NCBI GenBank assembly: GCA_015056545.1
Contig: SVGE01000007.1
Location: 1 to 64,000, forward strand
Source of the DNA: Clostridiales bacterium
Lineage (GTDB): Bacteria; Bacillota; Clostridia; TANB77; SIG350
Direction: 5' to 3'
Length of the DNA: 64,000 nt
Position numbers and translations under genes: made by a program. The notes under the pieces are model-generated. The model was not told where the DNA came from and ran no database searches. It worked only from the letters and a program-made list of their open reading frames with translations. Below, piece by piece: positions 5,395-5,564 of the stretch. The first letter of the stretch is position 1, and each line of letters begins with the position of its first letter.

Positions 5395-5469
5395 TATAAA
5401 ATAAAAATGCCTAGGTGGCAACGTACTTAACATACGTTTAGCTTTTAGCTACCATCCCTAGGTCTTACT
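5395..5469 (-). ncRNA. Candidate small structured RNA (three-way junction)
   Basis: The minus strand folds into a compact cloverleaf-like structure. P1 is CCUAGG (5457-5462) with CCUAGG (5410-5415), extended by UGG/CCA across a GA bulge; P2 is UAGCU-AAA-AGCUA; P3 is AACGUA-UGUUAAG-UACGUU. One unpaired G joins P3 to P1. The closing stem is followed by C and a U-rich tail (AUUUUUAUUUU), as for an intrinsic terminator. A promoter lies just upstream (5476-5504). I do not recognise it as a known riboswitch or RNA family. It could be an elaborate terminator for the ORF remnant overlapping it. Confidence 0.5.
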
Positions 5470-5564
5470 ATAAATATTTTAACATACATATAATTGTATG
5501 TCAAATATCTTATTACTATTTTATGTATTGAACCACTTTCATCTAAGTATACATATATCTTCAT
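5445..5564 (-). pseudogene. Short ORF resembling the N-terminus of a DUF3800 protein
   Basis: A 39-codon ORF with a good binding site (GAGGAGTG at 5571-5578). It begins MKIYVYLDESGSIHK, close to the conserved start of DUF3800 proteins (an Asp-Glu-Ser-Gly motif near the N-terminus), but then runs 'IVIRYLTYNYMYVKIF' and stops inside the structured RNA. DUF3800 proteins are usually several times longer, so this looks like a truncated remnant. Its distal part also holds the candidate promoter of the small RNA. Alternatively a genuine small peptide gene. Confidence 0.4.
5476..5504 (-). promoter_or_regulatory. Promoter of the candidate small RNA
   Basis: Minus strand: TTGACA (5499-5504), 17-bp spacer, TAAAAT (5476-5481). 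Consensus -35 and correct spacing. Predicted start near 5469, seven bases before the first stem. Confidence 0.6.

What the first reader, a model, noticed from the sequence alone, without database searches (positions are those of the whole stretch)
5395..5504. Candidate novel small RNA: compact three-way junction with its own promoter
Seen on the minus strand: TTGACA-17-TAAAAT, then an approximately 54-nt unit closed by CCUAGG/CCUAGG, with stems UAGCU-AAA-AGCUA and AACGUA-7 nt-UACGUU meeting at a UGG/CCA extension, ending in a U-rich tail. All three helices are perfect. It sits about 95 bp upstream of the 35-aa peptide and cdaA. I cannot match it to a riboswitch or known small RNA. Because a separate promoter for cdaA lies after the tail, it is more likely an independent RNA than a leader. 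It may bind a ligand, a protein or act as an insulator.
Basis: partly seen in the sequence, partly recalled or inferred. Interest (0 to 1): 0.75.

Follow-up and report, generated by a model that had tools for sequence, protein, structure and literature searches.

The report
Orphan small RNA of DUF3800 gene
The small three-armed RNA is real, but it is a relative of a known, unexplained RNA that normally sits beside a nuclease-like gene called DUF3800; here most of that gene has been deleted and the RNA is left behind, and comparing many such loci suggests that the RNA is kept intact mainly while its gene is present.

Summary
On the minus strand at 5504-5403 lie a consensus-like promoter and a 64-nt stretch that folds into a three-way junction with a U-rich tail. 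It is not without relatives: Rfam's DUF3800-I RNA (RF02969) matches its full length at E 8e-4, below that family's gathering score (35.2 against 44.2 bits). Relatives show covariation in every helix. Just upstream, 5563-5519 encodes MKIYVYLDESGSIHK, the first 15 codons of a DUF3800 gene; the rest was deleted, apparently between short repeats at 5525-5503. In relatives the intact gene sits directly before the RNA: all 15 close genes found by protein search have it. The own genome has no other DUF3800. Of 30 loci in 385 genomes, 12 are solo RNAs. Solo RNAs decay: broken pairs or indels in 8 of 18 distinct solos against 1 of 44 gene-linked copies. The RNA therefore most likely works with the DUF3800 protein (RNase HII fold); the window copy is a recently orphaned relic, not a cdaA leader. 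It is a new variant of a known kind: gene and RNA on one strand (convergent in canonical loci), no separate terminator hairpin. Whether the RNA is antitoxin, cofactor or guard is untested.

The parts
5519..5563 (-). Remnant of a DUF3800 gene: first 15 codons, MKIYVYLDESGSIHK; the body of the gene is gone
   Evidence: tblastn 86.7% over residues 1-15 of an intact relative, E 0.002; DNA alignments to L114, L151, L174
5503..5525 (-). Deletion junction, lying in an imperfect direct repeat present both after the gene start and before the RNA promoter in intact relatives
   Evidence: Overlap of the two alignments to L114, L151 and L174
5476..5504 (-). Promoter of the RNA, TTGACA-17-TAAAAT
   Evidence: 11 of 12 consensus letters; 43 of 44 distinct gene-linked relatives score at least 9 of 12 at this place
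5403..5466 (-). DUF3800-I-like RNA: three-way junction (P1 5462-5457/5415-5410, extension 5454-5451/5419-5416, P2 5450-5448/5442-5440, P3 5438-5432/5426-5420) and U-rich tail
   Evidence: RF02969 match E 8.3e-4, below gathering score; covariation on 49 distinct sequences; R1 match 95.4 bits

Best explanation
The RNA is one half of a two-part module: a gene for a DUF3800 protein (RNase HII-like fold) followed at once, on the same strand, by a roughly 65-70-nt three-way-junction RNA with its own promoter and U-rich 3' end. RNA and protein most likely act together as a ribonucleoprotein, the RNA binding the protein and controlling it. In this genome nearly the whole protein gene was deleted between short direct repeats, leaving 15 codons and an RNA that is probably still transcribed but has no partner. 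Shown: fold, covariation, gene-RNA linkage, gene remnant, no other DUF3800 domain in the genome, more decay in solo than in gene-linked RNAs. Inferred: direct binding, transcription, and the sense of the control.
For: RF02969 full-length match; 15 of 15 close DUF3800 genes have the RNA directly downstream; covariation, 7 pairs and 65 cells with double changes, 0 of 500 shuffles as high; gene remnant and junction; no PF12686 in the own genome; broken pairs or indels in 8 of 18 solo against 1 of 44 gene-linked sequences, promoter kept in 12 of 18 against 43 of 44; L114 carries the identical 64-nt RNA with an intact gene; RNase HII fold.
Against: The Rfam gathering score is not reached. The remnant is only 15 codons and Pfam does not see it. 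Solo and gene-linked sequences are related by descent, so the tests are optimistic. Many solos still keep a perfect fold and promoter (10 of 18 without broken pair or indel), which also fits a solo role. Nothing here shows that the RNA is made or binds the protein.
Confidence: 0.72

Rival explanations
1. The solo RNA is still useful: it is an antitoxin or anti-addiction RNA that neutralises DUF3800 modules arriving from outside, so it is kept after the gene is lost.
For: Solo RNA is common (12 of 30 loci; 16 of 74) while close genes without RNA were not seen (0 of 15); the window copy has perfect helices and promoter; solos L102-L104 carry a paired change G-C to U-A; AbiF/RCd22 is a described precedent (PMC12373285, abstract and passages read).
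Against: Solos as a group decay in pairing and promoter; several have lost the promoter.
Confidence: 0.14
2. A plain intrinsic terminator or insulator between acpP and the cdaA operon.
For: A GC-containing stem followed by a U-rich tail; it lies between two transcription units.
Against: P2 and P3 are nearly invariant and P3 covaries; relatives lie between unrelated genes; a promoter is conserved before it.
Confidence: 0.04
3. The sequence is chiefly a DNA end or recombination signal of a mobile element, not an RNA.
For: Homology between non-orthologous loci runs from about the gene start to the RNA tail, and occurrence is patchy (33 of 385 genomes at E <= 0.01).
Against: One copy in each of the 33 genomes; paired changes in helices; ragged left ends of solos, as deletions would leave. 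No target duplication was worked out.
Confidence: 0.05
4. A leader, riboswitch or ligand-binding RNA for cdaA or the 35-aa peptide.
For: It lies about 100 bp upstream of the peptide gene and cdaA.
Against: A separate promoter follows the tail; none of the 31 other genomes with a cdaA match has the RNA before cdaA in the 11 upstream stretches read; relatives of the RNA sit beside unrelated genes.
Confidence: 0.02
5. A guide RNA that directs the DUF3800 nuclease to a target, like the RNAs of TnpB or Cas proteins.
For: An RNase H-fold protein with an adjacent structured RNA.
Against: No variable guide-like segment: of 64 positions 51 are invariant in 16 sequences, and the RNA ends in a U-rich tail at the end of the homology.
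Confidence: 0.03

Closest known systems
DUF3800-I RNA (Rfam RF02969)
   Same: Three-way-junction core, shared P3 element (AAGCGTATGTTAAGTACG in several canonical loci), own promoter, adjacent DUF3800 gene
   Different: Scores below the gathering threshold; 5' hairpin not transcribed, no separate GC-rich terminator hairpin; gene upstream on the same strand, whereas in 17 of 17 canonical loci with the gene it is convergent; proteins only 25% identical
AbiF/RCd22 and type III toxin-antitoxin systems (ToxIN, CptIN, TenpIN)
   Same: Small structured RNA encoded beside a nuclease-like protein; RNA without protein is tolerable, protein without RNA rare (inference)
   Different: Here one RNA unit, not a repeat array, and it lies after the gene rather than before it; toxicity and neutralisation are untested; a different protein fold
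RNase HII / RNase H2
   Same: Fold of the DUF3800 model, Z 12.1 over 170 residues, rmsd 5.6; invariant D8, E9, D138, D182
   Different: 11% identity; activity unknown; genetically tied to an RNA

Membership tests
Rfam RF02969 DUF3800-I | Score at or above the curated gathering score (44.2 bits) | tested here: not met
   35.2 bits, E 8.3e-4; two relatives 35.9 and 35.5 bits, the other 8 loci of that call not listed at E <= 0.1
Rfam RF02969 DUF3800-I | Three-way-junction core with its consensus pairing | tested here: met
   Alignment pairs the core throughout; covariation in relatives
Rfam RF02969 DUF3800-I | 5' hairpin and GC-rich terminator hairpin of the model | tested here: not met
   Model positions of the 5' hairpin fall on the promoter, and those of the terminator on A/U-only sequence
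Rfam RF02969 DUF3800-I | Location next to a DUF3800 gene (recalled as the basis of the name) | tested here: met
   Remnant in the window, intact gene in 15 of 30 R1 loci and 49 of 74 pattern loci
Type III toxin-antitoxin system | RNA repeats ahead of the toxin gene with a terminator between (PMC12373285, passages read) | tested here: not met
   Single RNA unit after the gene
Type III toxin-antitoxin system | RNA neutralises a toxic protein by binding it | not testable with these tools
   Needs expression experiments
cis-regulatory leader / riboswitch | Constant kind of downstream gene | tested here: not met
   Downstream flanks differ from locus to locus; own promoter for the cdaA side
Guide RNA of an RNA-guided nuclease | Variable guide segment | tested here: not met
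   51 of 64 positions invariant in 16 sequences; homology ends at the U tail

The most novel reading that the evidence does not exclude
DUF3800 plus its three-way-junction RNA is an RNA-controlled RNase HII-fold nuclease module (toxin-antitoxin or abortive-infection type) that spreads among gut Bacillota, and the orphan RNA in this window is a natural antitoxin-only state that could shield the cell from the module. One branch of the nuclease genes would in addition need a +1 ribosomal frameshift inside its DESG motif.
Probability: 0.2. Interest if true: 0.75.

Novelty: new variant of a known kind. Interest (0 to 1): 0.42.

Why it matters
In the papers seen here DUF3800 RNAs have a name and no function. 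This gives a compact version (about 0.8 kb in all, 64-nt RNA), two gene-RNA arrangements, a natural set of gene-plus and gene-minus loci, and a statistical sign that integrity of the RNA depends on the gene being present. That makes the question whether the RNA controls an RNase H-fold enzyme directly testable with one small construct. It also warns that solo structured RNAs in genome scans can be leftovers of lost protein partners.

Tried and rejected
Rfam at gathering threshold found only two tRNAs in the window. Pfam found nothing in the 38-aa remnant reading frame. The viral contig collection gave no relative of the protein and no exact match of the RNA pattern; tblastn of the L114 protein in phage and plasmid records gave none. 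PADLOC gave no match; sequence search of solved structures gave one chance-level match, E 0.45. R1 in 291 genomes of the class hit only two, the own genome and one of the same order, so this RNA type is not class-wide in that sample; yet the 74 records found by exact pattern include MAGs titled Bacilli as well as Clostridia. The source paper of the DUF3800 motifs was not held, so its account of gene arrangement is unchecked; that these motifs were named for neighbouring DUF3800 genes is recalled. A ligand-binding or cdaA-leader role was considered and rejected. Independent maintenance of all solos was considered and weakened.

Rows dropped: 5 of 74 pattern loci (L116, L136, L140, L154, L161) and 2 of 30 model loci (L087, L105), because the RNA or its upstream 55-60 nt was cut by a contig end; identical rows were then merged; the pair between positions 13 and 51 was left out for all; L146, with only the gene's end on its contig, was counted as gene-linked; 5 distinct rows (the window and four contig-edge loci) were left out of the test. 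In 'solo' means no DUF3800 match at E < 1e-3 and at least 700 bases of upstream sequence; L178, counted as solo, has a weak match to the gene's end (E 0.013) and is probably a second remnant.

Full report
1. What is there. Folding energy is only mildly better than that of shuffled sequence (z -2.07, 5 of 200 shuffles as good), and promoter-like sites are as frequent in shuffles as here, so the evidence must come from relatives.

2. A known relative. Rfam scanned at its gathering thresholds lists only two tRNAs in the window. Scanned locally with permissive settings, RF02969 (DUF3800-I RNA) matches 5490-5380 over the full model, 35.2 bits, E 8.3e-4, against a gathering score of 44.2. In the window the model's 5' hairpin falls on the promoter and its GC-rich terminator on A/U-only sequence; the three-way junction carries the match. 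RF02969 itself occurs in 18 of 191 genomes of the order (19 places); most of these loci have a TTGACA promoter before the RNA, and several share AAGCGTATGTTAAGTACG of P3 letter for letter. In 17 of these 19 loci a DUF3800 gene is convergent with the RNA; L033 and L038 show no gene (strands).

3. The window's own kind. A DNA search of 95 genomes found seven strong hits besides the window itself, E below 1e-17. Four of these loci carry a gene directly upstream of the RNA on the same strand; the two proteins tested are DUF3800 by Pfam (E 4e-12 and 1.5e-10). A search of 385 genomes with that protein found 27 genomes: 15 close genes (67-100% identity), all 15 with the RNA immediately downstream, and 12 distant ones (31-34%), for which no such RNA is seen in the 3' stretches printed and whose genomes gave no R1 match. 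In 11 of 17 in-frame genes measured the stop codon falls 35-37 nt before the RNA's AAGACC, that is in the -35 box: gene and RNA are tightly packed.

4. Covariation. Sixteen RNAs align without gaps over 64 positions, with four pairs that change on both sides. Model R1 found the RNA in 33 of 385 genomes at E <= 0.01, one copy each. A pattern scan of GTDB genomes gave 74 records, titled as Clostridia, Bacilli and related gut MAGs. On 79 RNAs (49 distinct rows) seven pairs have double changes, 65 cells; 0 of 500 shuffles reach either value, slid controls give at most 3 pairs and 9 cells, and 95.2% of cells pair. P1 occurs as CCUAGG/CCUAGG, CCUGAG/CUCAGG, CCUGGA/UCCAGG and CCUAAG/CUUAGG, among others. 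One extension pair (positions 13/51) is mostly unpaired. The alignment was fitted to the model, which favours it somewhat; relatedness does too.

5. The gene was here. Window 5563-5519 encodes MKIYVYLDESGSIHK, 86.7% identical to the start of an intact relative (E 0.002). Alignments to L114, L151 and L174 show the gene start and the RNA region overlapping at 5525-5503, an imperfect direct repeat present both after the gene start and before the RNA promoter: the body of the gene was most simply lost by deletion between these repeats. L114 has an identical 64-nt RNA next to an intact gene. The own genome (99% complete) has no DUF3800 domain at E <= 0.01.

6. Solo RNAs and their decay. Of 30 loci found with R1, 15 have the gene, the window has the remnant, 2 are cut by contig ends and 12 have no gene in the 1.1-1.5 kb upstream; their genomes gave no match to the close protein at E <= 1e-10. 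Of the 74 pattern loci 49 have the gene, 16 are solo, 8 lie at contig ends and 1 shows only the gene's end at a contig end; the two sets share genomes. Some solos sit at sites where other genomes carry the gene, for example L097 against L139 and L179, where both flanks align. Left ends of solos are ragged, and several have lost the promoter. Counting distinct sequences, 8 of 18 solos against 1 of 44 gene-linked copies have a broken pair or an indel (Fisher p 1e-4), and 12 of 18 against 43 of 44 keep a promoter scoring at least 9 of 12 (p 0.002). Copies are related by descent (five of the solos form one group), so these p-values are optimistic. The simplest reading is that the RNA is under selection chiefly while its gene is present, so the two work together; the window copy, still perfect, was orphaned recently. 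Against this, 10 of 18 solos are undamaged.

7. Which way round. A gene without RNA was not seen among 15 close genes; among 23 canonical genes 20 have an adjacent RNA, two lie at contig ends and one distant copy has none. RNA without gene is common. That asymmetry is expected if the protein is harmful or inactive without the RNA; AbiF/RCd22 is a described precedent for a neutralising RNA (PMC12373285, abstract and passages read). It does not decide between antitoxin and cofactor.

8. The protein. The model of the L114 protein (pLDDT 81) matches RNase HII/H2 best (Foldseek E 5e-4; Z 12.1 over 170 residues at 11% identity). D8, E9, D138 and D182 are invariant in 14 proteins; their likeness to the RNase HII active site is recalled, not measured. 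An RNase H fold for DUF3800 was reported before, with the remark that the domain is associated with putative ncRNAs (PMC10910872, passages read), and DUF3800 is listed as an RNase H-fold accessory in some type V and VI CRISPR loci (PMC12669027, passage read). Window-type and canonical proteins are 25% identical over 216 columns.

9. Verdict. Function remains unproven. In the papers seen in the text searches and passages read none gave a function for DUF3800 RNAs; the founding paper was not available.

Noticed in passing
Gene starts in L109, L120, L126, L129, L139, L142, L143, L144, L159, L164, L175, L177, L179, L180; also 9 of 15 genes: Candidate programmed +1 frameshift: 14 of 31 readable DUF3800 genes carry an extra C inside DES|G (AGT C GGA), so frame 0 ends after 14 codons while the +1 frame stays open for 212-217 codons with third-position-biased changes (1206, 551, 4017 at positions 1, 2, 3, summed over pairs). 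L120 and L142 lack the ATG that could restart. The frame-0 codon at the slip is CGG, 7 of 24,069 codons in long ORFs of these loci.
   Followed up: partly
window 5301-5194 and upstream of cdaA in L205-L210 and others: A small peptide gene with a hydrophobic stretch (35 aa in the window) stands directly before cdaA in most of the 11 relatives whose upstream DNA was read, judged by eye.
   Followed up: no
L111, L125, L163 (solo RNA loci): Solo RNAs sit directly behind other defence or toxin-antitoxin genes: nucleotidyltransferase plus HepT-like (L111), BsuBI/PstI restriction endonuclease (L125), HicB-like antitoxin (L163, protein tested as L004).
   Followed up: partly
L083, L117, L130, L055, L056, L059, L060: The stretch downstream of secA looks like a recurrent site for this module: SecA ends are seen before the RNA in L117 and L130, and flanks of L055, L056, L059 and L060 align there at about 70-74% while the module itself is 84-90% identical.
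   Followed up: partly
window 5445-5563, minus strand: The truncated gene's reading frame now runs through the RNA promoter into the RNA and stops in P2, so an orphan 38-aa frame overlaps the RNA.
   Followed up: no
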